Of a stretch of DNA of 64,000 nucleotides, positions 28,574 to 61,532 are shown piece after piece. A program made the position numbers and the translations under genes. The stretch covers positions 11,544,680 through 11,608,679 of the forward strand of contig JAJEKV010000023.1 in assembly GCA_021234155.1 (NCBI GenBank), given 5' to 3'. The first letter of the stretch is position 1; each line of letters opens with the position of its first letter. This DNA is from Isoetes taiwanensis. Lineage: Eukaryota > Streptophyta > Lycopodiopsida > Isoetales > Isoetaceae. The notes under the pieces were generated by a model that worked only from the letters and a program-made list of their open reading frames with translations, was not told where the DNA came from and made no database searches.

Positions 28574-30040
28574 ATGTTCACAAATAACGAAACAAAACCC
28601 ATGAAAACACACGCTCAGGCCACCGGAGGGCAACCCCTCGTGCGCAGCACCTTGTTTCTTACAATTAATGGAATAGGTGAATATGATGGTGCTGGAGTTG
28701 TCATTAAACGAGCTCTTACACATAAAATGTTGAAAAGAGGATTAGTACCACTAAGGAATGCACATGATGCGTATTTCAGGGACAACTCCACACTAAAGAC
28801 AAATTCAGGTATGCTGAAATACTGCTTTGTAGCTGTTAGGATTTAGGGTTTACATAGGACATTGAAATTTTCTTTCTTACACAGGTCTTTCTGGGAAATT
28901 GAAGTAGATGAGGTTGATAGGTCAGAGAGATATGATTGTGCTACACTTTCTGGTTCAAGCAAGTTCCAATCCATCAGGCCAATTCAAGCTACAGATCCAA
29001 CACAATTGCTCATATGGATTACAATTGTTTTTGTCATAATTGTTGGTTAGGCAAACATGGCAAGTGCCCTAACAAAGGTAGAATAGGTGCGTGCCAATAC
29101 TCTGAGCTAAGATTAGGTGCTGATTATGTGGAAGATGTTGTGGATGGCTCTGTTTTTGAAGGTGGTCCTCAATGGAAGTCTAACATTCTTGCAGTTGAAG
29201 ATAATTTTTCAGTAGTTGCAGAGCCAGACAATAAGAATAGAATAGAATAGAGAACGTGGAATGTTACGTGCTCAAGTGCACTAAGGTGAAACATGTGGTG
29301 GAGAAGGCATTCAAAGATCCGTGGGGCCAAAAGTTTGCTAGAAATGAGATAGTTGTTACTGGAATATGTAGCAAAATAACAGGGGGTTCGAGGGGGATTT
29401 GATATGAATGTAAAATTAACAATTCCTGAAATCATAGACCATATGCCCCTAAAACAATTGAATGTGTGGTTATAAAAAAAAAACATAAATACAAGATAAA
29501 AAATAATCACATTAGCTCACTGGGTACATTGGTTAAAGTAGTCTTATTAGGGCATTGAGTTATTTTGGTAGAGGTTCGATATTCCCTCAAAACCTTAGTC
29601 GAAATCGTATTTCATATTTCAAAATCATAGGCGCCTCCAATCATAAATGACTATAAGCGAAATGAGAGGTGCCCAGAGGCTCCAACATGCGATAGGATCG
29701 ACGAATCCGACGACTGTGGTAGTCCAGGGTGCACCTCGTTTAGAATATGTAGCAGCAGATATGAGTTACTAGTAAATGAACCAGAGTGTAATGTTTATAG
29801 TCATTTGGTTACTTCTGTTTGTTTTGAGTTGAGCAAGATTAGTGGTGACTGTTTTGATTTGCCAGAAAATACACATAACCAAATATTGGACAGCTTGCCA
29901 CAAAACAGTGCATTGATAGCTCAAAACTCAGATGAATCTACATCAAGTGAGTTGAATCCAACAAGAAGAACAAGAAACTCTGAGAAGAGAAGAGAATAGA
30001 ATAGAGGGTATAAGCACGCTAGGGTGATAAAAAAAAGGGC
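28574..30040 (+). pseudogene. Transposase relic, C-terminal part
   Basis: Plus-strand pieces match the C-terminal half of the 46.5-58 kb transposases. EYDGAGVVIKRALTHKML and VPLRNAHDAYF (28,676-28,785) correspond to EHDGESAKAKQVLAGLTIHE. After an intron (about 28,808-28,884) SFWEIEVDEVDRSERYD and QATDPTQ correspond to VYWEVKESDIDRTNALD and SPTDPTL. CFCHNCWLGKHGKCPN matches CFCNACINFEWDACES, and ENVECYVLKCTKVKHVV (29,245 on) matches ENVPYYILLCKKTKFVL. A basic tail (NPTRRTRNSEKRR, then GYKHARVIKKRA) follows after an inserted SINE. Two short (GAATA)n tracts, at 29,231-29,250 and 29,988-30,002, create stops. The N-terminal and main catalytic parts are absent. Confidence 0.7.
29505..29720 (+). mobile_element. 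tRNA-derived SINE
   Basis: Pol III promoter boxes are visible: an A box TAGCTCACTGG (29,513-29,523) and a B box GGTTCGATATTCC (29,573-29,585, one base longer than consensus), with tRNA-like spacing. It follows an A-rich run (29,474-29,508) and lies inside the transposase relic. Its 3' limit and target-site duplication were not defined. Confidence 0.5.
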
Positions 30041-30495
30041 CATTCGAATACATTACATATAACGTTATGTATTTTAATTATAGCAAGTTTTTGATTGTCA
30101 TCATTAAAGAAAATGTCATTATTCGAGTGTACCAAAAATTCCCTCCATTTTGTTCCCCCTGTTTCTTGGCTAACCGAGTGGAGCAAGAATTGGTTTTTTT
30201 CCGAAAATTGGCACTGCTAAGAACGTTTGAACCGGCTCGGAACACTGCATATCCGTGTGATCTGCCCTGTAGGTTTTGTTTTCTTTATTTTGTAGTTTTA
30301 ATTTTCTGTGATTTCAGTCCGAAAATGAATTCAAGAAGTAACAGAACTGGTTCTATGGATTAAAAATCGAAAAGCGGTATTTTTCAAGCTAAATCGATGT
30401 AGGAGTTACATGAATATAAACAATGTCTGATCTTCAAATATTTCGGGCAAATTTATCTTATGAAATCAAATTTGTTGCTTTGTTCATTTTGCAGG

Positions 30496-31728
30496 TACTG
30501 TAAACATGGCAAAGACCCCAAAGAAGACACCAATCAAGGGTTCAAGAAAGTCTCCAAGGACCAGAAAAGCCTCCGACAAATAAAGAAAGCTTCAAGTTCG
30601 CATGCCAAAAGGAAATTTTACCTCGATGATACGGGTTTTTACGTAAAGGCATTTCGGACAACCTGAATTTTTGTGATGTTCTGGCGGTATGATGCTATGG
30701 TAGGAGAGATATGGGGTGATGAAGCACCAAGCGGTATGGCTATAAGGATGACGAATTGATATGAAGTGGACGTAAGAATTACGCAAATGGTATGAGTTTG
30801 CTTTTGGAAGAAAAGATGTTATGAATCACTATGTCCCTCTGTACTTCGCAAGGGCATTTGCATTGCATCTGAAAGGTGCAGAAGTGGATTGGGAAGATGT
30901 GAAAGCATGGGCCAGATCGAAGCAAAAGGAATTCGATCTATCTAGTGAGGTGGTGGCAATGAAATCTAGCAATGCAAATGCAAAAGCCCCAAGAACTTCA
31001 GCTAAGAGTTACACAAAGGAGCAATTAGAAGTTTTCAGTAACTTCTTAGACATCAGATCTATTGTGAAAACATCTTTAAGCAAGAAATTAACTGAGTTAA
31101 AGGAAAGAAGGCAAGAGATCCTTGATACATTGAAGCACAAGGAAGGGAGAGAGCGGTTTATATTAGGTTGGTCCAGAAGCGAGAGAGGAATGTTGAAGCA
31201 AAGATGGCAGCATTGGAGGATCAACAATCAAAAGCTGGACCAAACATCTGAAAAGTGCCATAAGATTTCAGCACCTAAAATGGAAAGTTGAGGATGCTAT
31301 CGAGCAAAAGGAATCAAGAATCGCGAGGATCGGCTGAGCTCGAAACATATTGACATGAATCTTACGGATTGAAACATGTAGATGCAAAGATTGAAGCTAC
31401 ATCTGTTGATATGAGCTCAAATCCAGGCGAAGACAAAAAAATTATGGAACTCAGGGAATTTTTAGAACATTCCTCGATCCTTACTTTACAACCCCCTCCT
31501 CTCCAGTCTACAATTCTTGCAGATCAGATTATTGTTCAGCCTTTTTCTTCATGTACATATTGTGAGCAATCTTTTGGTGTGAATCCAGTGGTTCTGGCAC
31601 CCTGCAGACACCCTTATTGTCTGCTGTGTATATCCTATCTTGCTAGCACAAAGATTTCATGTGTTGATCCTGACTGCTCATGGAATAGCAATTTGCCTGT
31701 AGCACTTGGACTGCTTGCAACAAAAGGT
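30496..31728 (+). pseudogene. Coiled-coil/RING-like transposon protein, diverged copy
   Basis: The start reads MAKTPKKTPIKGSRKSPRTR, a basic, nucleus-targeting-like N-terminus. After frame breaks, 30,821-31,291 gives YFARAFALHLKGAEVDWEDV and a long charged helix region (SYTKEQLEVFSNFLDIRSIV, KKLTELKERRQEILDTLKHK). This corresponds to FARAFA..DDFKVNW and the coiled coil of the protein at 59.3-61.5 kb. Then 31,369-31,728 gives a zinc-finger-like block CTYCEQSF..APCRHPYCLLCIS (CxxC, CxHxxC, CxxC) ending CVDPDCSWNSNLPVALG, which parallels CEGCGLLF..SCGHIYHVICF..CDVEVPPSIL in that protein. A GT donor follows, so the gene continues after a long intron. The likely role is an accessory (perhaps ubiquitin-ligase-like) protein of the element; that function is an inference. 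Several frameshifts and stops are present. Confidence 0.6.
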
Positions 31729-34300
31729 TAGTAGATGTACATTTAATTTACAATTTCTTTTCTTGTTTTAACTTCTTATCATTATACGAAGATAAATTCA
31801 ATTGTCAAAACCATCAAGCTAACTAAGAGAGAGAGAATGCAAATGAAAGAAAGCCACATCTGGGCACTACAATGACAAAATATTGGACCCACAAGAAAGT
31901 TGAGAGAAATAGTAACATCAAGCAGCAAAATGGCCCATGGTGAAGAGACTCTTACAGTATTAAAGACTCTCATGAATCTCAAACTACAATAAAGACCACG
32001 AAATAGGCAAATATTGCTCCCAACTAGGGAATATCACCAAACAAGCATAGACTAGAAAACCGTAAGCAACTATAAATATTGCTAAGGTAGCTACGATTTC
32101 TTTAAGATAAAAATGGATAAAATGAGACCTAGCGATGCCTGTGACCCATACCAAGTGTAATGATTCCTTACACGTGCACAAGATTTGGCAACCTATCAAA
32201 TTCAACATCAACATATTTTATCCAAGAAAGCTCGTCTTGAAGTTGCATTTTAAGTAGTATGGGGTAAGGTAGAGTTGTAAAAAAGGGCTAAAATTACAAT
32301 TGCAAAGTTGGTCAAACCTTATAATTAGGAAAGTAGACAACTTAGAGCTTGCCATAACTGCGACTTTAGGAAGAGCTATCCTAACTCTCCCTCAACATCA
32401 AAGTTCAAAGGCACACATCAACTATAAACGTTCCCAATTAATAAGCGAACATGCCAAGCATCTCGTAAATATGTATCATAGTTAGGCAAGTTGAGACGAG
32501 GTAAAGTTCTATGGAGCTACCATCAGAAGGTCCCGACCAGAATGAATGAGAAACCAACATTCTTCTTTGAAGAGACGGGTAGTTATAGATCTCATGACAT
32601 TACGAAGGGAACTGCAAAGAAGCAATCCAAAGTGTGACCATATACAAAGGTTATATTTGTTGTAAACATAGGGGTGGACAAGTTTCTAAGCACATAGGTG
32701 AAGTCAACTAAAGGATACTCTGCATGTAGTGGATATCCAACAAAAGTGAAAACCCAACAGAAGCAATATTGATATTGACATAGGCAGCGGATTGGAATGG
32801 AAAAATTATGTAGGCAACAACAAGCAGGCTCCTCTTCCACTCAAGCAATCAAATGTCACTATTCAAGGCATTTCATAGTATTCTGAACCAAAATATCTGC
32901 CAATAGCAATAAAACTCATATAATTAATATTTAAAACCCTCAAGAACGTTAGAGAAACTAAACACATTGGATAAAGGCAATATAATCCACGGTAGCAAGT
33001 GGAGATAAGATATTTAGCATGGGGAGCAAAAAGTCAATATTATAACATATATAGGAAACTCACCAATACCTACTATTACCCCATAAATGTATGACACATA
33101 ACAAATGGTAAACATGATTCTATAAATATGCATGAGATTTGGCAACCTACTAAATTGAACATCACCATATTTTATACATGAAGGCTCGTCTTGAAGTTGC
33201 ATTTTAAATTGGTGTTGAGTAAGGTTGAGTGGCATAAAAGCGCCAAAATTGCAAATGCAATGTTGAATGTCTAAAACTCTATAACTAAAAACTATAGACG
33301 TGCAACTTTAGGAAGAGCTATTCTAACTTCTTCCTCAACATCAAAGTTCAAAACCGCACATCAACCCTAAACATTCCCCACTTAATAAACAACTCATAAA
33401 GCATCTTGTAAAATATGTACCACAAGTAGGCAAGTTGAGACGAGGTCAAGGAGGCTAGCCAAAAAGGAAAAGAAAAGGTGAGGGCGCAAAAACTTAAATA
33501 GACAAGGTAGAAGATATTGCTACACCTCAAATGATTTGCCACCACTTCCACAGCTATAATATAGTCCTAAGTCTATAATGTTGCAACAAGTCGATGGATT
33601 CCTGGTCATCTATTGAATTCTAGGCTAAGTCAAACCAAGTTAGTCACAAAATCTTGTTGGATCTTGGCTCCAAAGGGCACCCAACAAAAGTAACTAGAGA
33701 GAGAACGAATTAAGAGCAAGGTACAACTCAAATAGGAAGAGGTGCCAAAATGAGAAATGACAAAGAAAACAGCTTTAAAAAACAACAAACAAACCACGAC
33801 TAGAACTTTCCAAATTGCGACTAGGTACAAAATTGGAGAAAATGAACCGGGAGGGCTAGGTACAGTGACGGAGAAAGTGGTGGGGAGAATTATGCCTGAA
33901 AGAACACAAATAAAGGCAACTACATAAGCAAGATATCTCATATCTTGCTTGAATCCACCAGACTCAACTACTCCAATATCCCATTTGTTCACACATCAAA
34001 ACATACACAAAGCCACTTTACATAATAAAAAATGTGTTTGGGAAATAAAAAGGGGGGATCAATGTAGCTAAAGCCCATTAATGCAAACATCATAAGTCTC
34101 TTGGCCCGAATAAGGAAGCGAAATTCTTAGTCCTAATTTTACATGCCTCAATTTAGAAATTTGAAACCACAATAATTGAGAATTTAAACCACAATAAAAT
34201 TTTAGGAAAATTTGGAAAAGAAAGGTTACTCATCTGGAAATGGTTCGTCATCACCAACATGTCACCAACATCTCTGTTCTTCTTCTTGCATAAAGCAATG
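31729..34300. repeat. Nested non-coding repeats with a duplicated 0.45-kb block
   Basis: No ORF of interest. A block at about 32,030-32,510 recurs at about 33,060-33,465 with roughly 80-85% identity by eye. Shared phrases include AGATTTGGCAACCTA, CTCGTCTTGAAGTTGCATTT, CTTTAGGAAGAGCTAT and AGGCAAGTTGAGACGAGGT. The region appears to have been inserted into the intron after the RING-like exon. It may be a large non-autonomous element; ends not identified. Confidence 0.55.
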
Positions 34301-36435
34301 AAATAGAAACATCTATGTTCTTCTTAGCATAAAGCAAATGAAATAGAAGCTGCATGAAGGATTCTGGTTTGGATTGCAAGGAGCACATAAAATGACCACA
34401 AAGTGCATAGATGCAAACTTATATAGCATAGCATCCCTTTATCTGGAACTCGACCTCAAAATATCCTTTTCAATTCAAGGACAAGAGTCTTGGAGGTGCA
34501 TGACCCCAACATTAAGTGATACCAACTTCGGTCTCAAAGCAAAAGTATCGCTGAAATACAATTTGTCGAATCACTTATTTGTCAAAACAAATGGCACACA
34601 CAAAAACCACGTGGATTCCGCTGGATTGCAAACAACCGGAAAGGGACGGATATAGGGGCTTTCATGTTTGAGCTGCTTCAATTTGAAAACTACCGAGCGG
34701 AAAGAACTATCTGAAACTCTTGTTATAGCATGATCGAAGCTTCAGACGAGATAGCTCTGAGGAAACTCTTGTTATAGCCGTGGGCCGGTGCTCAAACTCA
34801 AAAGGCTGGTGCTTGAAAACTCCTCTCAAACCCTCCTCCTTGTCACTATAATTGGGTTAGAAGAAAAATATGAGCAATGATATCGGCATTTAAGCGATAA
34901 GATCTTCACCGACCCTAAAAAGATAAGTTCTTCAAGTTCTAAGAAAAGTTCTTCATGTTCACCTTAGCGGGGAAAATCACTAAGTTCTTCACGTTCACCT
35001 TAGCGGGAAAATCATTTTCACAAGTCAACTTCTTAGTTGCTCTAGCCAATAGGAAGATCATTGAGTCCTCAAGTCAACTATATCGATGGAAATAACTATC
35101 ATCTGCAGACCGCACCCAATTTGGATTCATCATTTTGCTATCTACTTAAACAATCCATAACTAACCAAACTCCACTTTGGGCATCCTCATTTTTATGTGA
35201 AGCAAGTTACAACATAAAATACAAGCATGCAGCAGCTGTCAAGAAATAACACATAAAACAACCCCGTGGGTTACGCTTCCACAACCACAATTTGCCCGGG
35301 CGACCCTAAAAATAAGTGTGGTGAAGCCTTCGGGCCAAAATAACCACCCCGATTTTGCTTGCTCGGGTAGCAGGGCCAAAATAACCTTGTGGATTCTACT
35401 TTCAGTTACACCAGTGGGAACTTAGGCGGCGGCTTCTAATGTTTGATTTGCTCCAACGCCATAATAAGAAGAGGAAAGCGGCGATTACGTACTTACCCGG
35501 CCGAACCCCACAAAGAAAACTTGAAGCAACAATTCAAAACAAACCTAACAGCAACTCTCAAGGAAAAAGCAAGAGCCCTATAATTTGTGAGGCGGGAGAA
35601 AAAGGGGCTCCTCAAGTCCAGAACCACTACTCGGGTCTGATTTTCCCCTCAAGTCGAACTATTTATCGGGCCATAATTTGCCCAGGAAGAACATTCAACG
35701 CATTCAACCAGATAGCAAGGCCGAAGGTTGAAAAGAAATTTCACATAAAAAGAACCCGTTATGGCCGTGAACAATTTTGGAGTTGAAATCGATGCTCAAA
35801 AACCATCCACAAATCGGAAGAAAACAAGGCTGCTTGAGTATTGTCGTCGAAGGAGAATAATCGGTAGTAAAAACTTTACGGCTAGAACAAAAACGGTGAA
35901 AAACTAGGCATAAGAAAGGAAAAATGGCATTAGGCATAAGCGTGATGTAGGGGATCAAAGCCAAGAAAGCGTGGAGGCATAAGCGGGTGGGTGGGTGCTA
36001 TAGGAGCACGTTCTCTGACAAAAAACCAAGGGAGATCTGAGATGATGGTGATGAAAAAGGAGGAGAAAAGAAAGGTATAAATAGGCGTCGGAAGAACATA
36101 ACGCAAAACTAACTCATGTGAATGGTTTTGACAATTACATTTAATAGTTAGATTCTTTTTTGCATGAAGGTTTTAGGCTTGCATTTACATTGAGTATTTA
36201 GATACATAGTTTTTGTAGTTGGAATAATGTGGGTTCAGTCATGTATAATCTGCCAAATAGACTACTTATTTTCAAAGATGAGAGTTTTTAATTTCATGTG
36301 CTCATCAGCTCAGTAATGTAGGTAGCTAATTACTTGTTATTGAGAACTGTATAGTGTAGCAATTGACAGATACATTGCTATTGTTGCTGTCAAAATTACA
36401 TTTTGAGTTATTATTGAATACTTCATGACTCATCA
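34301..36435. other. Gene-free repeat-like sequence
   Basis: No coding motif. Short direct repeats occur, such as AGTTCTTCACGTTCACCTTAGC-like phrases at 34,950-35,010 and ACTCTTGTTATAGC at 34,717 and 34,767. The stretch probably belongs to the same nested insertion as the preceding interval. Confidence 0.4.
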
Positions 36436-36439
36436 GTGG

Positions 36440-36640
36440 GCAGAGTACAATATCAGCTAGCTTTGTTTACATTGATTGTACTTCAGAACAATGCATTTCA
36501 GAGTACATTCAGTACATTTCAACAGTACATTGGGTACATTTACATGATAAATCAGAGTACATTATCAGATGGATACATTGGAGTACATTGTCTGTTAATT
36601 TTTTTCATTGACTGTACTTGTAGAGTACATTGAGAATACA
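36440..36640. repeat. GAGTACATT motif cluster
   Basis: At least nine occurrences of AGTACATT or close variants (GTACATT, GATACATT) lie within about 200 bp, irregularly spaced. Equivalent clusters in inverted orientation (AATGTACTC) lie in introns of the transposase copies at 48.2-48.45 and 56.8-57.05 kb. Confidence 0.65.
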
Positions 36641-36679
36641 TTTCTTAGCTGATGATCTGATATACTCAATGTTTGACTG

Positions 36680-38990
36680 ATGCAGGTGATTTTGGTAGCA
36701 TAAGGAAACCAGAAAAGGGTATGATATTGTAGTCTTGTTAATCATGCATATTCCTTTTCTTATCTCAAGTCTTTTTCTACTCTTTATTGTAGATGACAGC
36801 AAGAAGCCAACAACACTTTCTTCCAAGGTATTGGATTTGACAGAAGGTCAGGAGGATTTGGGAAATACTTCTACATGGGCATCACCTGTAAACCTTGTAA
36901 AGTCTTTTGAGGAAGAGCTTGAGGTACCAGTGAAGTCCTCGGATACATGTAAGTAAATATCACATTTGATTGATTTACAATCCCTGGAATTTAATTTTCA
37001 TGTCATATGAGCTTGATATGTCACTTGGAATTCCATATAGCCACGAGCATACTGATTCGAACATTTGTGGATTATCTTGTGAGAGGTTGAAAAGTTAAAA
37101 GCGTAGAAGCGGTAGTTAATCTTGCAAGTATGTTGCATCTTCTTTTTGCTTGTGTGTACTGCAATTATTAAACACCATTTTTTGTAGGTTCTTCAAGTTT
37201 TTCTTCATAGTATAAAGTTCGAGTCCATAGGTCTTTCTTCACAATACAAATTTCTAGAGAAACCAATTTGGAAACCTATTAAGCCAATGCCATCATTTCA
37301 GCGGAAATTCAAATCTTTGTTGAGTGATGATTCAACAATATACCATTAACTTAAAATTAGGATTCACAATCTTGATTAACTTTGGTGACTAATTTATGCG
37401 AAAGTGTTGGAAATTGGTGAATCTTCTGCGGCCTTTGTTCGGGGCAACCATTGAAAAGATAGAGGATAGTAGCCATATTAAGGGAGAGCAAGAGATGGTG
37501 GAGGTACAAAGAGATCCAAAAGAATGATGTGGCGGTGGAGGAAACCGGGGTGAGGAAACAAAGGTTGAGGAAACAAAGGTTGATGACATAGAGGAAACCA
37601 AGGTTGAGGAGACCAAGGTTGTTAAGCGGGGAGAAGCGGAGACAAAGAAAAAGGAAGGAGTGTATGCAAAATACAACTTCAACCAAAAGGTGAATATTTA
37701 TTATGTTAATTGAAGCTTTTAAAGTGTAATATCTGAACAATTTTATGATGACTTCTTGGGACTAGAAGCCAAACATCATCTGAAAAGTGCTTTCGATCAC
37801 GGAGATGACGGCCGCGAGAGTAAGTAAGATTACATTGTAGTTGCAATTCATTTGTCTCTCAATAATGCAAGTTTGCTTTTACGAGACACGGAGAGCTTGT
37901 TGAAAATAGTTCCATGCTACCCTTTCCAAAGCAAAAGCCTTTAATCAAGGTGACTAAATATTGTGTGGAAGGTCTTTGCGAGAGCGGGCACATGTCCAAC
38001 AGGGCATATAGATATATTTGGAAGGTAACTTGATCAGATTCTTTTTTTGCATTATGGTTAACTCTTGAACATCTAACCTCACTTTCTTTGTGAATAGGTA
38101 TCGATTAGCATTATGCGACAAATGGCGTGATGCATTTTTTTCTTCCCTTGAGGAGAATTTCTTAGCCCTCTGAGCGACCTTTAACAAAGCGTCATCGATG
38201 CAACCCGATGAGTACGGTCACGGATTGGCTGTAGTTCAAAAGGGCTTCAGGGGAATCATATTGAGCAAATGCCCGATTACATTATGATTCCAATCAGTTG
38301 AGGATCCTATGCACCATGCCTTTGGTCATCATTGTTTTAGATAAGGCCAAGAAGCTGTAGCGGCACCCCTTTGTCTTCTCCAGCTATCCTTATTACGGAC
38401 TTCGCTAAAGAATGTGCGGGGTTGACCACGAGGATGGTTATGATGTAAGTGCACTCACTATTAATTGATGTAATGCTTCATAATTGTGATGTTATTTTCT
38501 ATTGCGGGCTTCATAAAGATATCATTACAGCATTGACTAATTCCAGTTCTCGTAAGATTGATATTTATGTAAAGAATTCAGTGTAGAAAGAAATTAGACC
38601 TGAGGTTCTACAACAAGGTGACACGGCCTCCTGTGGTCTTTATGTCATGGCTTATATGCAAGCCTTTGTGGATGCCAAGGTGCAGTCTAAGAGCATGGTG
38701 AGATAACATATACACAATTGCTTTTTATATAATATTTAATTCTGAAAACTATTTGTTTTCATTCTTTCGATTCTCTTGATTGGTTTGATCGCGGGTATGC
38801 AGTCGGGGAGACATGTGCTCATTAAGGCTATGATTAATTATAAGAGCCATCTCATCCGAAGCGAGGCACTACTAGCACCTCGCAAGAGAAGCATGGTAGT
38901 GCTTAACTTCTTTCATAACTCTTTATCAAATGAGGCCAATTGGCTTTTTCTTATTGGAAACAACACTAAGCCATTTGGCTTTATGTAATC
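36680..38990 (+). pseudogene. Ulp1-like C48 cysteine protease (transposon-borne)
   Basis: Short exons are followed by a protease domain. Exon 36,793-36,949 is acidic (VLDLTEGQEDLGNT..). A lysine/glutamate repeat region (EETKVEETKV) lies at 37,550-37,650. Then come YIMIPI (38,277-38,292, the beta strand before the catalytic His in this family), HKDIITALTNSSSRKIDIYV, and the catalytic block EVLQQGDTASCGLYVMAYMQ near 38,600-38,660. The Gln before GD and the Cys in SCGLYV are the oxyanion-hole Gln and nucleophile of Ulp1/SENP SUMO proteases. The His and Asp are not clearly readable, and several stops and frameshifts break the gene; some could be sequencing errors. Ulp1 domains are frequent passengers of plant DNA transposons. 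It may be the 3' part of the same gene as the RING-like exons at 30.5-31.7 kb. Confidence 0.65.
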
Positions 38991-39009
38991 TTGATAATGT
39001 AATCAATGA

Positions 39010-50150: not shown

Positions 50151-50289
50151 AGGTATGACCCCAACAAACCCACTGATGCCGTAGTCAATAACTGATGCAA
50201 CGGCTGGCCAGAACGGTTACAAACCGGTTGTTCTTTTTAATTGTAAATTTCATACTATTGTAATATGCTCTTTCATTGTCTTGGTAGAG

Positions 50290-50600: not shown

Positions 50601-50649
50601 ATATCAAGTCCTACAAAATTTACAAAACAGATGTCACATTCACGAAAAT

Positions 50650-51930: not shown

Positions 51931-51989
51931 TATCATAACATCAATTTTGGACAAGCTCTATGAAGATGGCATCCCAAATTTAAACATGT

Positions 51990-52852
51990 TTATGGAAAAG
52001 AGATATGTTGGGGACTTCCTTACACAAATTCAGTTGGTGTAACCCCTCAAGTAGTACCTATGGATAGTATTGTCATTGAATATCCTAAATACAATGGTCG
52101 ACTCTGTGGTGTGTTTGAGTCTAAGCACAAAGCTCTTTTCAACAAAGAAAGTTATGTTTGTGTGCCACTATGGACACCTTTGATAGAACGCGACAACCAT
52201 CTGTCCTTCTTATTTGATTGGTTGGTAGGGTTGAAATATGCACCAGATTTTACGAATTACATAAAGGAGCATAAGTTGGATGACTCTTGGATGTACAATG
52301 CCTTTGATAAACTGAATCTGTTTTACTGTAACTTTTCTTGATGTTGATTTGCTTTCATAACTCTTTTGAGTACTTGTTAAATTATATCTATTATTAATAT
52401 TTAAGGTTGAGGAAGTTTTAGATTTAATACTTTATAAATGCTAATAATTTTTAACTTTTGTTATTGGATTAGAAGTTGAGGAAAATGAAATTGAAGAGGA
52501 ATTTATACATGGAGCAGAGGTTGAACCAGAACAAAAGGAACTTGTACATGTACATGGAGCAGAGGTTGAACCAGATGAACCACCTTCTACTTTAGGGACT
52601 GAAGCAGAATATGTTCCAGATGTACCATTCTCTTGTGGCTTAATGTATGAAGCAAGATTCCTTACCAGCCTGCCTGGATTATGGGAACAGGTCGAACAGA
52701 TCGAAGATAGAAGCACCAGGGATGAGATGCTAACAATACTTTGGGCAATTCACAAGATCTATGATCCTGATCCTTGGGGAAGGAATCAGTTGCCAAGTGC
52801 GCACGAAGTCAATCTATACTGCAGGAGGGGCTGGAGGGGCTTCCAATTGTAA
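51990..52852 (+). CDS. Unrecognised acidic element protein, copy 2
   Basis: A cleaner copy of the protein at 39.0-40.2 kb. The first block (52,025-52,341) encodes VGVTPQVVPMDSIVIEYPKY..GVFESKHKALFNKESY..LFDWLVGLKYAPDFTNYI..NAFDKLNLFYC. A GT donor candidate at 52,328 and an AG at 52,471 could bound an intron, though the phase was not resolved. The second block (52,474-52,852) encodes VEENEIEEEFIHGAEVEPEQ, a second HGAEVEP repeat, CGLMYEARFLTSLPGLWEQV, LTILWAIHKIYDPDPWGRNQ and a stop. No family recognised. Conservation of the frame in both units suggests it was coding until recently. Confidence 0.5.
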
Positions 52853-52859
52853 GAGAAGT

Positions 52860-55065
52860 AGCAAAGTGGCCTCTCGCCACGCTAGTCCTAACATTATATG
52901 GCGCTCCGAAAATCTTAGGAGAATGGATGCAAGAAGTTGATATATTCTGTAAAGTTATCAATAACAAGAAACATGTTTTGAAATAAGTTGATGTACTCAA
53001 TTACAATGTAATATAAATCATGTTACACCTGCACTTTTCTCTTTTCGGATCTCTCTCAACATATAATCATTCAATATATAACTGCTTCAAGCTATTCCGG
53101 ATCATGTAGCATTTCAGCAGACTTCCCAAGAGCATCTCATGCACATCAAGAGACAATGCATAAGTTTGCGAGAAGCACCCTTCACCTTATGATTTACTTT
53201 TGGCATTGCAAACTTTGCTCCAATAACAGACTCTGCAGGTACAAGAACTTCTTTGTCATCCAATAACTTCTAGAGCCTAGTTGCACTCAACCAAAACACC
53301 ACAACAACATGCTGAATGAATGAATGAATGAGCCATGTGGCCCTCCCCTTTATTTCCAAAACAGCAGTACAAAAATATTTCACTTCTAATAATCCCTCAT
53401 GCACACCGCCTTTTGGGCATATAAAAAGCATCAAAGTAACACAAAGGATCCAAAACTCAAATAAGTTCATAAAGATTTAAGGCCTCCGTTGCTAATGTCC
53501 AACACGACCCCAACACGCCAAGACTTTTGCAAAACTCGCAAAGGACGTCTCCACATCCAACTCTAAGCAAACCTGCAAAAGGAACAAAGAAACACCTGGT
53601 ACGAGGACCCCAATCTCGGCACAAAGGCCGCCACATCATTGGCATACGAGGGGCCACCACCATGGCGCAAGGGCCCTCAACATCGACCCCAGTTAAAACC
53701 CAACATTCAAGCCATAAGAGTTGCCCCAACAACAATGCTTGGCATGAGAGCCTCTAGCCATTGTACAAGATAACCGCAAAGATCGTGAAGTCAAACACCG
53801 AGCTAAACAACATAAAACGAAGATATTGACTATTAGAATACTTCAATGACGCAAGGTAAGAACGCAAGGCTAAAACTAAAGAGGGGGGGGGGGGGTGGGG
53901 CATGCGACTACAAAGGGAGAGGCTCAAAGACGGCTGATGAAAATGGGGGCTGGCATCCACAGTGAAAATCGTGAGTCCAAAAAGATAGCAGGCAAGGATA
54001 TTATGACAGGTGCAACACACATAAGCTATACTAATGGCAACCGACATGAACTAGGATCAAAGCTGGCTTATGCAAAGCATAGAAAACAGAGGAAAATAAA
54101 CTGAAAGTTATCACCTGAGTAGATTGTGGAGTCCAGAAAGCTGCAAATCAGATATGTTGAAGACGTGAAGCGACGAAGGAAGTCTTGAATATTGTGAGCA
54201 ATCCAAACCCAGCCTTTGCCTGAAGCATGTGTCTTCGAGACTCTTAAAACGGCTTGGATTCAAAACTCTTCAAGAAAAGGACTTGCAACATGGCAAGAAC
54301 GAATTGCATATAGCCTGGATTCGAACCTATAGCAAGAGTACACTAAGTATGAAGAAAACTAGGCCTGTAGGTAAACTCAAACCCTGAATCCGTGAATCGT
54401 AAGTTGCACTAGCTCCTCAAAAATGGACTGGCTTTTGGATTCATCCATACACTGGCGACAAGCATAATCCCGCTTCCAAACTCAGAGCACCACAAAATCA
54501 AGGCAACACAACTCCAAACAAAAAAAATCAAGCACGGCCAATGTTCTTCCTGAACCGAGAGATTTGAGCACCGATTAAACCCCTCATGAGACTAAGCGGA
54601 CTCAGTGAACTATATCACCATGAGCTTGGTGACGTTTTTGTCGCACCGGCCCGACGTATAAGGCTAGGGCTGAGTAGCTTGAGGAGCCCAGAAAGCAGCC
54701 TGCTAGCAGGAACTAGACACTTCGATTCGCCCAAAGAGATACGATCCAAACCGTTAATAACGTCATCTGTGCTTATGAAGCAAGTGCCTTGGAGACTCTA
54801 AAATCGTCTGGAAGAAATCAAAGGCGCAAATAAAATGGTAGCTTCACAAACCCTAAGCTCCGGGACCAAACGACCAACAAATTAGCTCAGATGAGATGAG
54901 TACAAAAGGCAGACTCAAAGGCGGCTCAGAAGAGAGCGCCTAAGAAAATTACAAAGCGCCTACATGCGACTACAAAGGGGGAGGCTCAAAGACGGCTGAT
55001 GAAAATGGGAGGAATGCAACAAGGCTATAAATACTCCAAGGGGGCTCTCTCAACTAGCCTCAAGA
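52860..55065. other. Non-coding part of unit 2
   Basis: Matches 40,180-41,313 and 45,388-46,502 of unit 1. A G-run (GGGGGGGGGGGGG at about 53,884) replaces GGGAGGGGG in unit 1, close to the 4-kb length difference. No gene recognised. Confidence 0.55.
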
Positions 55066-55109
55066 AGCGGATTTATCTGCTAATCTCAAAACGCAGATAA
55101 ATCGCACTT
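55066..55109. repeat. Hairpin across transposase stop codon, copy 2
   Basis: Identical to the hairpin at 46,503-46,546, including the single missing base in the right arm (GCAGATAAATCGC against the expected CCGC end). Confidence 0.75.
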
Positions 55110-58100
55110 ATACTTGTGGTGACAACCAGGCAATTTTTGATAGTAATACGGGATATGACCTGTTTCATCTGTATGGTGATAATTTTTGTAATCGTCAATA
55201 ACATTTTCCTGCAAAACAAATTTTGTTTTCTTGCAAAGAAGGATATAGTATGGCACATTTTCTCCATTTCCTGGTGCAGCAAAAGAAGCAAACATACCAC
55301 CTACCTGTACTAGATCTTCTAGCTCTTCATTTTCATTTGCAAAAGCAGCAGTTTCCTCATTCTCTACTTCACAATGAGTACTTACTCGGGGTACTAGCTT
55401 CTTTAATTGCCACTTCCCACAGAATGAAATGGACTCACAAGCATCCCATTCAAAGTTAATGCAAGCATTGCGTAGAAGCAAGATAATGGTCTCACCATTA
55501 CTAAGGTGGGGTCATTGGACTTATAGAAGCTATAGCATGCAATTTCTGAATACCGGAAGAGGTTGCACATCCAATGCATTGGTTCTATCAATATCCGACT
55601 CCTTCACTTCCCAAAGATACTCTGTTAACATTAGATTGCTTGCTCCTCAAGACAACACACAAGCATCATGTGCACCTCTAATCTCTGCTTCCATGTTCTC
55701 GTGAATCGCTCGGGTGCAAGTACCGCTTGGCCTTGGCGGACTCTCCATCATGTTCACCTTTTCCATGCCCGTAACCAAAGTAGTTCCATTGTAAACGAAT
55801 GCCATATTCAACATAGTACCGGTAATGAAATATGAATTTCTTCCGGACTTGTATTGTGCAAAGACAACCATCGTACCACACAATATGATACCGTATATGA
55901 GATCCACCATTCTCTTTCAGCCATTTTAGATGAAGCTTAAATGCATGTTGTACAAAATGTGTATCATGATTTACGCATCGAAATATACAAGTGAAAACAT
56001 CTTCTTCAAGATGCCATTTACCTTTAGCATGGTAACTGTACCATTATAGTAACTTGGTCTCGCATTCCAATGTTCTCGACCAACCTCTTTGAAAGGCTTC
56101 AATGTATAATTTTCTGCAAAGTCAACCACTGATATCAATGAATCATCTTTCGTGTTTTGAACACATCTTCTCGAATTTTTGCTTTGCCGCTGAGTCGCAA
56201 AGTTGTGATGGATAAATGTCTTCATGTGACCAAACATGGCATCCAAAGATTCTGAGTGCATTTGTTGTCTTCTCCACCAACTCGAGCCTTCTTGAGACTC
56301 CTTTTTAGACTTCTCATCCACATAAGAGTATATTTGCCAATTGACTTTACTTTCAATGTCATTTTCGGTTTCTTTTGGACACAAGCTAATGTTCTCTTAC
56401 CACGTTCTTGCAATCACTTGTAATACAATTTAATTTGTACCACTCGTCACTATCCCCTGCTTTTGGACAAACCATACTCCTCCATAGAGGCCGACATTAC
56501 AAAGATGTATGCTTGTGAGCCCCGACAAATTCCATCATTTTTGTTAGCAAAGACAAACTTCACAATTGCAGCTACAATTGATGTGAAGCTTAGCCCTCAT
56601 AGAATTAAATGCCTTCCTGAAGTTCTCTGCTTGCTCATGCTTGACACAACAACATGTGTTTCTTTCCTTTAGCTTCCTTACACAATCAGGTTTGAGGTAT
56701 TCGAACAATCTGATGCCAATGTCTGCCTCTGGGTGTTGCTCCACAAAGTTCTGGTACAGTTCAGCCTGTGCATTCAAATCATCATAGTTAATAAAAGATT
56801 TTGTATGTGCAATTGAGTACATGCGGAGTCAAAATGTACTAACATGTAGTCATAATGTACTAATATGTACTCAGATGTACTCATATGCACTCATATGCAC
56901 TCATATGTACTCAGAATGTACTTACAATATACATAAGGACAACAGAATACACATTACACATGTACATTAAATACGTGTGTAAGGATAAAGTAGCAGTGTG
57001 GGTACATTACTGTACCCTAGAGCATATTAATGTTCTAGAGTAAATTCTTGAAGTCCATAGGCACTATCTGAAAGTCTGAGTACAAGATATGTACTCTATA
57101 GACATGTATAACATACAATATTATGCAAATATCTAATCTGTACATTGCTTAAGAATTTTGGAGTCACTGCATAAATAAGAAAGGAAGATTTAGTGTAATA
57201 TACATGGTCAATAAATGTAAGCAAACCAACAAAGGTGATTGCATATGTAAAAGTAAGTAAAAGTGAATACATAAATAATAGATCACCATTAGAAAGCATT
57301 CATACATCAAAACAAAGAAGATACTATAAATTCCAATAAAATGAACATATACATGAGGGATCGAAGCATTTCACACAAGAAAGAATGAAATACCCGTGGT
57401 ATATCAAGAAACCGGATTGCTTCGATGCCTTTTCTTTCTTACATCCCCAGATTTAGGGTGAAACCTTGGTGTTGTTTAACCAAAATTGGATGACTAATTG
57501 CTTTGTGTCTTCGTCCAAACAATCAGATCTTCTCTTTCTGCCTGCTAATGCCCATATACTTGGACCTGCAATTTTCATTCTCTTTCTTTTGCCCGGCAAC
57601 AGATGACAAATTTCGAGGATGGCGCTTCAACATTTTGAAGCAACTCCTTTTTGCTTCAATTCCCCATTTTTCCCAACAATCATGGATAAAACAGAGTGCT
57701 TGGCTGCCAACTTGTCACTGCTATTAGAAGATTTAACCTCTTCTAATCCATCTTTGAGATTTTGTAACAATGAATGTTTCACCACCGCTTCTGAAGGTAG
57801 CCCAATCACAGGTTTAAACAACGCCAAGAGCTTGTTATCTTGCAAGATCCTGGAAACCAATACCTCTCTTTCACCGTGAGATAGAAATCGGCTTCATTTC
57901 TAAAGCATTCAACAACCTTTTCTGCTCTTTTCCTGATTTTTTTGGTGAAGTACCTGGTATATGATCTGCCATTCTCACTGTTGACAGTATCACTCTCTGT
58001 CACTTCATTCAGCATGTCATTTAGAGCATCTTGTTCAACCATTTTCTGCTTCCCTTTGTCGATTTCGGTATCACCGTCCTCATTTTCGACATCAGCCTGA

Positions 58101-58135
58101 GTAATTCTGTTCATACTTTGATTTTCTTGTGCCAT
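55086..58135 (-). CDS. Putative DDE-type transposase, copy 2
   Basis: Duplicate of the 46,523-49,528 gene with the same exon order and start (MAQENQSMNRIT.. at 58,135). It preserves an N-terminal piece of the Cys-rich exon that is shortened in copy 1: MYSIAHTKSFINYDDLNAQA then ELYQNFVEQHPEADIG near 56,822-56,715. The DFAENY, WNYFGYGHGKGEHDGES and C-terminal Cys blocks are readable, but the SDGC block reads in shifted frames (CGTMVV..). Most interruptions coincide with CAG or CTG in copy 1 appearing as CGG, CGT, CAAAG, CCG or CCCG here. I therefore suspect sequence error rather than gene death. A combined reading of the two copies is probably closer to the real gene than either alone. Confidence 0.65.
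56810..57040. repeat. AATGTACTC cluster in transposase intron, copy 2
   Basis: Same irregular cluster of ATGTACTC-like octamers as at 48.24-48.46 kb, with one or two single-base differences. Confidence 0.7.
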
Positions 58136-58497
58136 GCCACTACTACTACTATGAAAACTGATATGCATGCAAAGATCCGGCAAGAATTTGAAATTCTTTT
58201 CTTTGTTTTAGATTCTTAGACCGTAAATTGGAGGGAATTTGCTTGCTTCGGATGGATTGGAGGGAATTTACTTGGATCGGAGGGAATCCAGTGATTGTGC
58301 CCAAAATTTCGCAACAACAAATCACCCACTTCATGTCATGATGACAAACAATCAAATATATTCCTTTTTAAATATATAACGACAAGCACGTGGCCTCCTA
58401 CCATACATTCAAAATTACATAAAAAACGGGTTTCTAGTGCAAAATAGTACATGAATTTAGAACTAATGTATGACACCCTAGCATGCTTTTACCCTAG

Positions 58498-58760
58498 AAT
58501 AGAATAGAATAGAATAGAATAGAATAGAATAGAATAGAATAGATTTTTTAGCGTCCACAGAGACCAATTGGCCTATGGGACCCAAACAAAAAAAAGAGAG
58601 CAAAGAAGCGTATTATTGATGAGATTAAAAACCCCGCCAAAAGGTTTCGAGGGAAAAACCTTAGCAAATAATAAGTATCTTTGTACGCATGTACAATTGT
58701 ATAGGACTGTTCAATATCGTCCCGGAGGACACAACTGAGTCCGTGCATCCATAACCTCCT
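58498..58760 (-). mobile_element. Non-LTR retroposon 3' end, copy 3
   Basis: Duplicate of 49,889-50,150, including the eight-unit (AATAG) tract. The hairpin region is corrupted relative to copy 2 (CAGCA read as CAAAGA; GCTGG as CTTTG), again at CHG sites. Confidence 0.7.
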
Positions 58761-58899
58761 GGAGGTATGACCCCAACAAACCCACTGATGCCGTAGTCAA
58801 TAACTGATGCAACGGCTGGCCGAATCTGCTACAAACCGGTTGTTCTTTTAATTGTAAATTTCATACTATTGTAATATGCTCTTTCATTGTCTTGGTAGA

Positions 58900-59220
58900 G
58901 CATGCTCGCAATGAAATTTTAACCATTGATTCGTATTGAGATTAATTTGTATTGAATTTTTTAAGCATTGATTTGTATTGAAATTTTAATCATTGTTTTT
59001 ATTGAGATTAAAATTGAATTGTGTGTGAATTGAAATTGAAACAAAAGTGTGTTTGAATTGAAATTGTGTATGAATTGGACTTGTAACATTCATACATAAC
59101 AGATTGAACATGATATCAAACATGATATTGAACAGATTCATAATAGATTGAACATGCTATCTAACATTCCTAACAGATTGAACATGAACACATTCAGAAC
59201 AAATTGAACCCGATATCAAG
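58900..59220. repeat. Low-complexity tandem repeats, copy 2
   Basis: Duplicate of 50,290-50,600. Confidence 0.65.
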
Positions 59221-59261
59221 TCCTACAAAATTTACAAAACAGATGTCACATTCACGAAAAA

Positions 59262-61532
59262 TAGTGTTTCACAAAATCTCGCATCTAAGGGGATTGGTGC
59301 GAGACTAGTCTTGAAACAGAAAGCAATATTAGTCAGTATTGGTTCATCACTTAAAATTACATTTGCAACTTCTTATGCAGCTTCTTCTCCAACCACTTTT
59401 CCATGGCAACATCATCCTCCATGGTTCTGTCTGAGCTTTGTGGAGACAATAGTGCTTTCCTCTGTGATGGAGAAAGTATGTCACATACTGGTGAGATCAC
59501 CACTGTGCTCAATTCTCGACCTGCAAACCCAAACAAGTAAATACAAAATTATTTTTGCAAGCAAATTGTGCAAGCTAACACTTACAAGTGCTCAAGGTAG
59601 TTGGAATTCACTCAGACTCATCCACTGCAACTAGAACTTGAGGATCTGCATGATACAACTTAGGCTAGTCTATAAATAAAACTCCTTACACATGTGCTGA
59701 AAAGGCGCTTACCTTTTTTAAGTGGAGTGTTCATTGGAGATAAACCTTTGTCTGAAACCTCAGTCTCCACAACACCTTCCTGTCCAACCTCATTAACTAC
59801 TTTTGAAATTTTTTCTGCATCAAAAAAGTTGTTGTAAGTTATATACACATCAGTGAATGTTATGCTCAAATGTTGCTTACCTTTCATTTTTGGAGACAAA
59901 TTATGCACTGCAAAACAATGCTGGACAATGTTATCTATAACATCATCACAGGTATTGTCTGCAGCAAAAAAATCTTAAGTAAGATAGTACATCTCATATC
60001 TCAATGTTAAATTAATTACCTACTGATTTAGTAGCTATCTGAGGACTCTCTTCATGAGTTAAGTGTGAAAACTTCATTATCTTATCTATATCAACTGGAT
60101 CTGCAAGGAATAAATAAACTTGAAGCAACTAAATCAATTGAGAAAATACTGATAAATACCTTTGTCTATTGGTTTTTGACCACATGACTTAGTAGCACTC
60201 CTTGTTATTCTTTTCTTTGCCATTTTGACAGGCTGAAAGTCTGTGCTTGATGGATCATTGAACAAAGAGGTGTTGGAGCTGGTTTCTTCTCTGAATCTCT
60301 TCTTAGGTGTCACCTCCTTCTTATCACTCTTGACCTTGCTGCTTTTTCCAATTCTTCTGCTTCAATTTCTTCACTTGCTTCTTCATCATCTGAATCTGGT
60401 GGTTTGAGTTCCTTGAAACCAAGTTCGTCCAAAATACTTGGAGGAACCTCAACATCACAACCAGATACAATGCAATGCATGCTTTCCAGCACAACACTGA
60501 AGCATATAACATGGTAGATGTGACCACATGATTTAAGTTTAACATGCAATTCATATTCTTCTGAAAACAGAAGGCCACAACCCTCACATGTGGTTGCCCC
60601 TTTGAACGTTGGGAAATTATAAGTTCCCATTCCCAGTATTTGATGCAAATGTGCAACATGCTTGCACTTGGCATGCCAATACTTCATATTACTTTCATAA
60701 CTATCAATATCAGATTTAAAAATAGAAATTTCTTTCTTTAGTTCCTACAAACCTGATGTGTTCACCTTAAACATCTGCTTGTCTAGAAAAGCTTGCAGAG
60801 CTTGCTCATCCCTTTGCAATTCTTGTATTGCCACTCCTTCATCAGGATTAAATAGCTGCAATTCCATCCACATTTGCCTCTTCTCCTTTATCTCTTCTTC
60901 AAGATCCTTGAAGTTTGCATTCGAGTTACTGATGGAACCTTCCATTCTCAACAGGCCGGCCTGTTTCTGCACCATTTCTTTCCTACTATCCTCATACATG
61001 AAAAAAAGTGACCTTATGTAATTCAGCAATGCAGTAGTGTTCTTCTCGAAAGCATTCACATGCTCTTTGTTCAGCTGAACTTGGTCAATCCTATAAGCAT
61101 CTGCTGCTAAACTCACCCAATTAACCTTAAAATCATCAGGATTCTGCAATGCCTTTGCAGTATGTGACCAGGCAAAAGCCCTTGCAAAAGGGTTCTCAAT
61201 TCATTATTTGGAAGCAATTTTTGATAAACTCTCGCTATCAAATCAGTGAGTGTTGTCTTGAACTGGGGCTTAATTAACTTGACGTGTATCTTGCTGGTCT
61301 TGGGCATATGTTTTTCCCAAACCTGCAAAAAATCAGCACTTGGAACATCTGCCCACTTGATACTTCTTGCATTCTTTCCCTCCATCGAAAGTTTCCAATT
61401 TCTTGCAAATTCAATGGGCGTTCTTGCAAAACGTAACTCCTGCAAAACCGAGTTCTTAGCCTAGTCCCTTAAAAATAAATTAGAAATGCAAGAGGGAACT
61501 TATACCTCGTCGGAATTGGGTTTGGTTGCCAT
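59262..61532 (-). CDS. Coiled-coil protein with RING-like zinc motif (element gene)
   Basis: Minus-strand, multi-exon. Exon 1 (61,532-61,506) reads MATKPNSDE with a GTATAA donor. Exon 2 starts at 61,439 after a TTTTGCAG acceptor and reads ELRFARTPIEFARNWKLSME.., IKWADVPSADFLQVWEKHMP.. A frameshift near 61,195 is followed by FARAFAWSHTAKALQNPDDF.. and a long coiled coil (FEKNTTALLNYIRSLFFMYE, FKDLEEEIKEKRQMW, to 60,745). A zinc block at 60,600-60,430 has CEGCGLLF, then SCGHIYHVICF, then HCIVSGCDVEVPP, an approximate C..C/C.H..H..C/C..C RING-type spacing. It continues as an acidic tail (PPDSDDEEASEEIEAEELEK) and small exons to about 59,300. A diverged homologue sits at 30.5-31.7 kb, also beside transposase sequence, so it is probably an element accessory gene. 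Ubiquitin-ligase function is only a possibility. Confidence 0.6.

What the first reader, a model, noticed from the sequence alone, without database searches (positions are those of the whole stretch)
28574..61532. A multi-gene plant DNA-transposon-like system: DFAENY/WSDGC/HGKG transposase with RING-like and Ulp1-like partners
Seen: a transposase-like protein with motifs VVDFAENY, HDTHFVQ, WSDGCAAQYK and HGKGEHDG lies beside a coiled-coil protein with a RING-like zinc block in two separate clusters. One is on the plus strand (28.6-31.7 kb), the other on the minus strand (61.5-55.1 kb). A C48 protease Gln-Cys block occurs downstream in the plus cluster. Known: Ulp1-type proteases are carried by several plant transposon superfamilies. 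Inferred: these genes form one element family. The transposase motifs do not match MULE, hAT, CACTA, Harbinger or KDZ as I remember them. Pairing a possible ubiquitin-type ligase domain with a SUMO-protease domain in one element would be unusual.
Basis: partly seen in the sequence, partly recalled or inferred. Interest (0 to 1): 0.8.

Follow-up and report, generated by a model that had tools for sequence, protein, structure and literature searches.

The report
Plant jumping gene carrying RING partner
This is an abundant cut-and-paste transposon whose cutting enzyme is regularly accompanied by a RING-type (probable ubiquitin-ligase) gene and, in one branch, also by a SUMO-protease-like gene, so it links DNA jumping to the cell's protein-tagging systems.

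Summary
The motifs are real. The two "clusters" are a mosaic of two elements, but properly delimited elements do carry the partner genes. Window copy: a minus-strand TIR element with ends at 30006 and 49887 and 4-bp TSD, cut up by insertions and partly tandem-duplicated (second 5' end 58494); it holds transposase, an NIF-phosphatase-like remnant, Ulp1 and RING. It lies within a second-clade element (transposase exons 23.1-29.4 kb, RING 61.5-59.4 kb). Three TIR families give exact 4-bp TSDs in 14/18, 18/20 and 23/25 end pairs. The catalytic core is predicted as an RNase-H/integrase fold (pLDDT 79; best Z about 10) with a DDD triad. Where a listed partner lies within 15 kb of a listed transposase it is nearly always convergent and downstream: RING-B 52 of 53, RING-A 25 of 28, Ulp1 24 of 24. 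RING occurs in both clades (about 40% identical cores); Ulp1 was found in clade 1 only. No Pfam transposase model and no PDB sequence matched. DDD, 4-bp TSD and size fit the Sola superfamily as reviewed, but no Sola sequence was available to test membership. Verdict: DDD transposon, new variant; partner function inferred.

The parts
30006..49887 (-). clade-1 (family 1) transposon copy, transposase strand = minus; interrupted by insertions about 31772-36139 and 40629-46542
   Evidence: matches near-full copies F56/F52a in pieces; TIRs and TSD
30006..30026 (+). 3' terminal inverted repeat GGGTATAAGCACGCTAGGGTG
   Evidence: this end with two more bases at 40 genome places
49867..49887 (-). 5' terminal inverted repeat GGGTAAAAGCATGCTAGGGTG
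   Evidence: 54 and 46 genome places with two longer patterns
58474..58494 (-). duplicate of the 5' TIR made by the tandem duplication
30002..30005 (.). target-site duplication TAGA (TCTA on the other strand), within an (ATTCT)n microsatellite
49888..49891 (.). target-site duplication TAGA, other side
46544..48199 (-). main transposase exon region, copy A, frameshifted; carries VVDFAENY/HDTHFVQ/WSDGCAAQYK/HGKGEHDG
   Evidence: tblastn with P0001; motifs
40456..40644 (-). C-terminal end of the transposase of copy A, cut off by the insertion
55107..56828 (-). transposase, tandem-duplicate copy, frameshifted (WYDGCLCTIQ in place of WSDGCAAQYK)
57806..58207 (-). N-terminal frame of the transposase gene (MAQENQSMNRITQADVEN...), gene model inferred
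   Evidence: open frame; just downstream, 57569-57396, a distant match to a clade-2 N-terminal exon
39109..39423 (+). NIF/FCP1-like HAD phosphatase remnant inside the element
   Evidence: tblastn; Pfam NIF E=2.2e-5 in sister copy F56
51887..52104 (+). duplicate of the NIF-like remnant
38545..38703 (+). Ulp1 (C48) protease, Gln-Cys block
   Evidence: tblastn 43% over 51 aa to the Ulp1 of E30; Pfam C48 E=0.0013 in E30
51774..51890 (+). duplicate of the Ulp1 block
30752..31731 (+). coiled-coil RING gene (RING-A) of family 1; zinc block CTYC...CRHPYCLLC...CVDPDC at 31552
38469..60310 (.). tandem duplication: unit 38469-51697 repeated as 51698-60310, with stretches missing from the second copy
   Evidence: self-BLAST
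23116..23345 (+). catalytic exon of the clade-2 host transposase (WSDGCSHQFKGAR...HGKG)
28632..28846 (+). clade-2 transposase exon with NGIGEYDGAG (EHDGAG in relatives)
29113..29390 (+). clade-2 transposase C-terminal exon
59358..61520 (-). coiled-coil RING-H2 gene (RING-B) of the clade-2 host element, limits approximate; zinc block CEGC...CGHIYHVIC...CIVSGC at 60588

Best explanation
The window holds a DDD-type cut-and-paste DNA transposon nested inside a relative of a second clade. Shown: the family has 21-23 bp TIRs starting GGGT, makes 4-bp target duplications, and in the copies examined carries a transposase gene reading inward from the 5' end and, on the opposite strand reading inward from the 3' end, a coiled-coil RING gene (both clades) and a Ulp1-type protease gene (clade 1). 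Predicted: the transposase core is an RNase-H/integrase fold with a D-D-D triad (DFAEN, WSDGC, HDG; 40-41 residues between the second and third D). Inferred: the transposase binds the TIRs, cuts the element out and joins it to a staggered 4-bp target; the coiled-coil RING protein is a second transposition protein, most likely an E3-type ligase or a zinc-stabilised assembly factor acting on the transposase or on host silencing or repair proteins; Ulp1 in clade 1 removes SUMO or a similar tag from the same targets.
For: Two near-full copies, 9755 and 9712 bp, with matching ends and TSDs TATA and CTAA. E30 family: identical 21-bp TIRs at both ends, TSD ATTT; 456 exact ends in the genome against 0 for the reversed pattern; of 18 plus/minus end pairs within 45 kb among the 100 places listed, 14 show a 4-bp TSD, against 4.4% over all 342 pairings, true pairs included. 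Family 1: 18 of 20 pairs; three repeat another pair's flanks, leaving 15 of 17. Clade 2: 23 of 25 pairs, against 16 of 600 mismatched pairs. Catalytic core model pLDDT 79.4, pTM 0.72; best VIA matches are retroviral integrases and Mos1/Metnase, Z 10.5-9.4. D at columns 1 and 2 in 18 of 18 rows; D at column 3 in the 9 rows that reach it; of the other 9, 8 are clade-2 rows that end at an exon border, and the next exon reads EHDG in L055, L056 and L059-L062. Among listed hits within 15 kb: tpase/Ulp1 24 of 24 convergent and downstream, tpase/RING-A 25 of 28, Ulp1/RING-A 56 of 58 on one strand with RING upstream; clade-2 tpase/RING-B 52 of 53; shifted controls average under 0.6.
Against: Most listed hits had no listed partner within 15 kb: 24 of 150 transposases near Ulp1, 28 of 150 near RING-A, 53 of 150 RING-B hits near a clade-2 transposase, 58 of 136 Ulp1 near RING-A. 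The lists hold only the best 150 or so of thousands and many copies are fragments, so these are lower bounds, but transposase-only elements are not excluded. RING matches to Pfam are all below the curated cut-offs, and L063's RING had no Pfam RING match. The Ulp1 match, 19.0 bits, is below its cut-off of 20.7. Foldseek gave no PDB match at E <= 0.001, and in the VIA list two Argonaute-type chains (Z 9.8, 9.5) tie with the integrases. No expression, excision or enzymatic data. The role of RING and Ulp1 is inference.
Confidence: 0.8

Rival explanations
1. The transposase is a member of the already named Sola superfamily, so the element is a plant Sola with accessory genes rather than a new superfamily.
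For: A review describes Sola as DDD transposases with 4-bp TSDs, mostly 2-9 kb, TIRs from 11 bp, present in moss (PMC10741241, passages); Sola2 has AT-rich 4-bp TSDs and short TIRs (PMC3627910, passages). The element has a DDD pattern, 4-bp TSDs, 21-23 bp TIRs and about 7-10 kb length.
Against: No sequence comparison with a Sola transposase was possible; nothing named Sola appeared in the Pfam or NCBIfam results, though whether such models are in the libraries was not checked. The passages seen mention no RING or Ulp1 in Sola.
Confidence: 0.55
2. RING, Ulp1 and NIF genes are chance-captured host gene pieces (as in Pack-type elements) with no role in transposition.
For: The NIF-like piece is in family-1 copies and in L049 but not in E30 or L063. 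Many RING and Ulp1 frames are broken, as are many transposases.
Against: RING sits at the same place and orientation in clades with only about 40% identical transposase cores, and Ulp1 hits of 97% down to about 50% identity keep it too; RING-A hits have open frames of up to 468 aa without stops. Chance capture would not give fixed order and spacing. This rival may hold for NIF.
Confidence: 0.12
3. It is a Ginger- or Mutator-type element, known transposons that carry Ulp1.
For: Ginger1 and some MULEs carry Ulp1 domains; Ginger1 has 4-bp TSDs and an integrase-like core (PMC2836005, passages).
Against: Ginger1 and Ginger2 ends are TGTNR and Ginger1 targets CCGG; here ends are GGGT and targets vary and are AT-rich. 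MULE TSDs are 7-12 bp by the review. No MULE or integrase Pfam hit. Here Ulp1 is a separate convergent gene.
Confidence: 0.03
4. The association is only local: unrelated repeats piled up in this window.
For: True for the two clusters as drawn: each joins genes of two different elements.
Against: Fixed order, orientation and spacing at many places in the genome, and whole TIR/TSD-bounded copies with the genes.
Confidence: 0.02

Closest known systems
Sola superfamily (Sola1-3)
   Same: DDD transposase, 4-bp TSDs, short TIRs, several kb, reported in some plants (PMC10741241 and PMC3627910, passages seen)
   Different: Convergent RING gene in both clades and Ulp1 in one; sequence kinship to Sola not tested
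Ginger1
   Same: Integrase-like core, 4-bp TSD, Ulp1 domain in many members (PMC2836005, passages seen)
   Different: TGTNR ends and CCGG-type targets in Ginger1; GGGT ends and varied AT-rich targets here; Ulp1 is a separate gene here, fused to the transposase in Ginger1
Mutator-like elements with Ulp1, including plant ones
   Same: DNA transposon with a C48 protease (named in PMC2836005, passages seen)
   Different: 7-12 bp TSDs in MULEs (PMC10741241), 4 bp here; no MULE Pfam match
Kolobok lineages with a second protein (KolX; KolobokP nuclease)
   Same: DDD/E transposase with a second protein, in KolobokP downstream on the complementary strand (PMC9587614, passages seen)
   Different: TTAA-specific targets and other partners; here RING and Ulp1
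Retroviral integrase / Mos1 mariner transposase cores
   Same: Predicted fold, Z about 10
   Different: 5-13% identity over the aligned part; integrases have DDE (recalled); mariner has 2-bp TA TSDs

Membership tests
DDE/D cut-and-paste TIR transposon | Terminal inverted repeats shared by copies | tested here: met
DDE/D cut-and-paste TIR transposon | Fixed-length target-site duplication | tested here: met
   4 bp in 14/18, 18/20 and 23/25 pairs
DDE/D cut-and-paste TIR transposon | RNase-H fold with acidic triad | tested here: met
   By prediction and conservation only:
Sola | 4-bp TSD | tested here: met
Sola | DDD (not DDE) triad | tested here: met
   By conservation and predicted fold; no mutagenesis
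Sola | Sequence similarity to Sola1-3 transposases | not testable with these tools
   No Sola sequence was at hand
Ginger1 | TGTNR ends and CCGG-type targets | tested here: not met
   GGGT ends, AT-rich varied targets; rule from PMC2836005
Kolobok / piggyBac | TTAA-only target | tested here: not met
   TSDs such as CTAA, ATGG, TTCC, GTCC; Kolobok rule from PMC9587614 passages, piggyBac rule from the listing of PMC7351741
Mutator (MULE) | 7-12 bp TSD | tested here: not met
   4 bp; rule
Tc1/mariner | TA 2-bp TSD | tested here: not met
   4 bp, not TA; rule
KDZ | Pfam KDZ/CxC transposase domains | tested here: inconclusive
   No KDZ match at E <= 1; the models' presence in the copy was not checked
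RING-type E3 ligase | Eight Cys/His ligands in cross-brace order | tested here: met
   Pattern present in RING-A, RING-B and L063, 0 in one shuffle; Pfam scores below cut-off, none for L063
RING-type E3 ligase | Ubiquitin transfer activity | not testable with these tools
   Needs an assay
Ulp1 / peptidase C48 | Pfam PF02902 above gathering score | tested here: inconclusive
   19.0 bits against 20.7 for the C-terminal exon alone; Gln-Cys block present

The most novel reading that the evidence does not exclude
A distinct superfamily of DDD transposons, not Sola, that moves as a two-protein system: transposase plus an element-encoded RING E3 ligase, to which one clade has added its own SUMO protease (and some families an FCP1/NIF-like phosphatase). 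Such an element would write and erase protein tags on the transposase or on host silencing factors and so escape control, which would explain its very large numbers in this genome.
Probability: 0.25. Interest if true: 0.82.

Novelty: new variant of a known kind. Interest (0 to 1): 0.6.

Why it matters
Ubiquitin/SUMO-pathway domains recur in transposons, and the Ginger paper suggested that these pathways take part in transposition (PMC2836005, passages seen). Here a RING gene is kept at a fixed convergent place in two well-separated clades, with long open frames in many hits, so the idea becomes testable: remove or mutate the RING gene and measure excision. It also gives exact ends, a TSD rule and likely catalytic residues for a transposase that no Pfam transposase model recognised, which should help repeat annotation in genomes with this family.

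Tried and rejected
The first structure model, of the whole 629-residue frame, was poor (pLDDT 40) and was not used for fold searches; the core alone with clade-2 rows worked. Foldseek in the viral library gave RNase H, RuvC, terminase and polyprotein matches (best E 9.4e-5, TM at most 0.36 by query length among the 50 rows shown). VIA rows list mostly integrases and mariner-type transposases, plus two Argonaute-type chains; the absence of other families there is not used as evidence. Relatives in viral contigs, prokaryote contigs and phages: none confirmed. Pfam hits to Pro-kuma_activ (0.0073 and 0.0016) and an NCBIfam hit (0.0033) were taken as chance.

An idea that copies have a fixed 5' end and ragged 3' ends was dropped: for E28 and E67 a 3' end with the matching TSD lies beyond later insertions (C1028 pair 21.9 kb apart, TTCG; C1067 pair 32.7 kb apart, TATA).

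NIF phosphatase as a core gene was not borne out. It is in family-1 copies and, at a like place, in L049, but no match was found in E30 or L063; the NIF frame upstream of the transposase in L048 lies on the other side and belongs to a very large repeat family (6366 first-look candidates). Ulp1 as a universal partner was not borne out: 0 of 150 clade-2 transposases had a listed E30-type Ulp1 within 15 kb and L063 had no match at E <= 1, though a diverged Ulp1 could be missed.

First-look candidate counts (5581, 4921, 1838, 6366, 1492, 1997) are rough and are not copy numbers. Seven paper searches for such an element listed nothing that, by title and start of abstract, describes it; three more were for Sola. 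Only open-licence PMC papers are held. The original Sola paper was not held.
Full report
What was checked. The finding describes two clusters of a transposase-like gene beside a RING-like gene, with a C48 protease downstream. The motifs VVDFAENY, HDTHFVQ, WSDGCAAQYK and HGKGEHDG are present on the minus strand at 47.2-47.6 kb, and all but WSDGCAAQYK again at 55.8-56.1 kb. Eight-ligand RING blocks lie at 31552 (+) and 60588 (-), and a Ulp1 block around 38.6 kb (+) with a duplicate around 51.8 kb. The transposase frames in the window are broken by frameshifts; frames of up to 629 aa without a stop exist elsewhere in the same genome.

What the window really holds. A self-comparison shows a tandem duplication: 38469-51697 is repeated at 51698-60310, in pieces 93-97% alike. 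Comparison with two near-full copies fetched from the same genome, F56 (9755 bp) and F52a (9712 bp), shows that the minus-strand transposase at 49.9-46.5 kb, its C-terminus at 40.6 kb, the stretch 39.6-36.1 kb and the RING gene at 31.8-30.0 kb are pieces of one element, with ends at 49887 and 30006, split by other sequence. The ends are inverted repeats, GGGTAAAAGCATGCTAGGGTG and GGGTATAAGCACGCTAGGGTG, flanked by TAGA on both sides, inside an (ATTCT)n microsatellite. The rest belongs to an element of a second clade: transposase exons at 23.1, 28.6 and 29.1-29.4 kb (+) and a RING-H2 gene at 61.5-59.4 kb (-). The family-1 copy lies between that transposase and that RING gene. That it inserted there is inferred from the order of the pieces and from the microsatellite on both flanks; the host's own ends were not found by a search for exact inverted matches of 11 bases or more between 11.0-23.2 and 61.3-64.0 kb.

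Ends and target duplications across the genome. Family E30, with a transposase 55% identical to family 1, has identical 21-bp inverted repeats and TSD ATTT. Its end occurs 456 times exactly, the reversed control 0 times. Among the 100 places listed, 18 adjacent plus/minus pairs lie within 45 kb; 14 show an exact 4-bp duplication, against 4.4% in all 342 pairings, true pairs included. For family 1, 18 of 20 pairs; three of these repeat another pair's flanks (the duplicated 5' end in the window, C1094, C1100), leaving 15 of 17, and one pair spans 102 kb. For clade 2, whose ends read GGGTGCTTTTTTTATTGACCTAC, 23 of 25 pairs, against 16 of 600 mismatched pairs; one of the two misses looks like a twin of another locus. 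Lengths run from 264 bp to 12.6 kb, with 8 of 25 at 6.98-7.13 kb. The targets are AT-rich but varied.

The enzyme. The 629-aa frame has no Pfam match above cut-off and no PDB sequence match at E <= 1; none of the 18 core sequences matched a transposase model. The core (260 aa, alignment A2 with both clades) was predicted with mean pLDDT 79.4 and pTM 0.72. The order of strands and helices is that of an RNase-H fold. Foldseek hits are weak (best E 1.1e-3, HIV integrase). VIA-align, which only re-ranks Foldseek's matches, gives Z 10.5-9.4 over 119-166 residues, mostly to integrases, Mos1 and Metnase/SETMAR, with two Argonaute-type chains tied among them. The first two acidic residues (DFAEN, WSDGC) are D in all 18 rows. 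The third, D of HDG, is D in the 9 rows that reach the column; the other 9 (8 clade-2, 1 partial clade-1) stop before it. It is also among the invariant columns of A1. In clade 2 the frame breaks between HGKG and EHDG, most simply an intron. Spacing is 81-95 residues between the first two Ds (18 rows) and 40-41 between the second and third (9 rows).

The partners. In E30 a Ulp1-like frame (PF02902, E 0.0013, 19.0 bits, just under the cut-off) and a coiled-coil RING frame lie on the strand opposite to the transposase. In listed best hits, 24 of 150 clade-1 transposases have a listed Ulp1 within 15 kb, all 24 convergent and downstream; 28 of 150 have a listed RING-A, 25 of them convergent and downstream; 58 of 136 Ulp1 hits have a RING-A, 56 of them on the same strand with RING upstream, mostly 2.2-3.3 kb away. 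Position-shifted controls average 0.37-0.58, at most 3. For clade 2, 53 of 150 RING-B hits have a listed transposase, 52 of them convergent and downstream, typically about 3 kb away; control mean 0.26, at most 3. No clade-2 transposase of 150 had a listed E30-type Ulp1 nearby, and the one clade-2 copy fetched whole, L063, has a RING gene but no Ulp1 or NIF match at E <= 1. The RING ligand pattern is C-x2-C ... C-x-H-x2-[CH]-x2-C ... C-x(3,4)-C, with Cys at the fifth ligand in the clade-1 block and His in the two clade-2 blocks. Family-1 copies carry an NIF/FCP1-like phosphatase piece between transposase and Ulp1 (PF03031 E 2.2e-5); an NIF-like piece lies at a like place, antisense and downstream of the transposase, in L049; none was found in E30.

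How it most likely works. Shown: TIR-bounded units with 4-bp target duplications, many copies, and fixed gene order. Predicted: a DDD RNase-H-type nuclease. Inferred: cut-and-paste with a 4-bp stagger. Inferred and uncertain: the RING protein as a second transposition protein, either a ubiquitin ligase aimed at the transposase or host factors, or an assembly factor; Ulp1 as its SUMO-directed counterpart in clade 1. A second gene downstream on the complementary strand has a parallel in KolobokP (PMC9587614, passages seen).

Comparison with known kinds. By the review seen in passages (PMC10741241), Sola transposases are DDD with 4-bp TSDs, mostly 2-9 kb, and occur in moss; Sola2 has AT-rich 4-bp TSDs (PMC3627910). 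These features are met, but kinship by sequence could not be tested, so membership stays open. I recall, from no call, animal proteins with similar DFAENY/HGKG motifs; this is a lead only. Ginger1 is excluded by termini and target (PMC2836005), MULE, mariner and Kolobok/piggyBac by TSD. Ulp1 in transposons is known from Ginger1 and MULEs. A conserved RING partner did not show in the papers listed by seven searches, judged by title and start of abstract, which cover only open-licence PMC text.

Verdict. An ordinary kind of machine (DDD TIR transposon) with an unusual, well-conserved RING partner and, in one clade, Ulp1: a new variant of a known kind.

Noticed in passing
L048:7565-8665 (+), G000:C1033: A 367-aa open frame starts MARTKQTARK, the histone H3 tail as I recall it, and ends in a histone fold (Pfam Histone E 3.5e-28) with about 250 aa between; a 60%-identical piece lies in L022:5276-5550, so it may be a repeat-encoded H3-like protein.
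   Followed up: partly
L048:3-842 (+): Open frame with an NIF/FCP1-like phosphatase domain (E 3.4e-11) that belongs to a repeat family with 6366 first-look candidates in the genome, apparently separate from the transposon described here.
   Followed up: partly
window 41268-41412, 46400-46546, 54963-55109: About 147-bp repeats (the first is 91% like the other two) at or near the edges of the sequence that cuts the transposase gene; possibly ends of another mobile element, partly lost in the tandem duplicate.
   Followed up: no
window 10160-11960 (-): Further relative: TIR-like GAGTAGAAGCACAAAACGGTG at 11960 (4 mismatches) and a transposase exon VGVRTFEYLKPTCVRRLKERNTCLCVKHEQ at about 10.4 kb.
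   Followed up: no
G000 C1005:339907 and 352570; C1094:4572041 and 4693843; C1100:16708797 and 17095095: Element ends with identical 12-nt flanks at two places, the C1005 pair sharing the window's flank; segmental duplications or unmerged haplotypes.
   Followed up: no
G000 C1078:15514113-15514396: A 264-bp unit bounded by clade-2 ends with a 4-bp TSD (TTCC): a likely miniature non-autonomous form.
   Followed up: no
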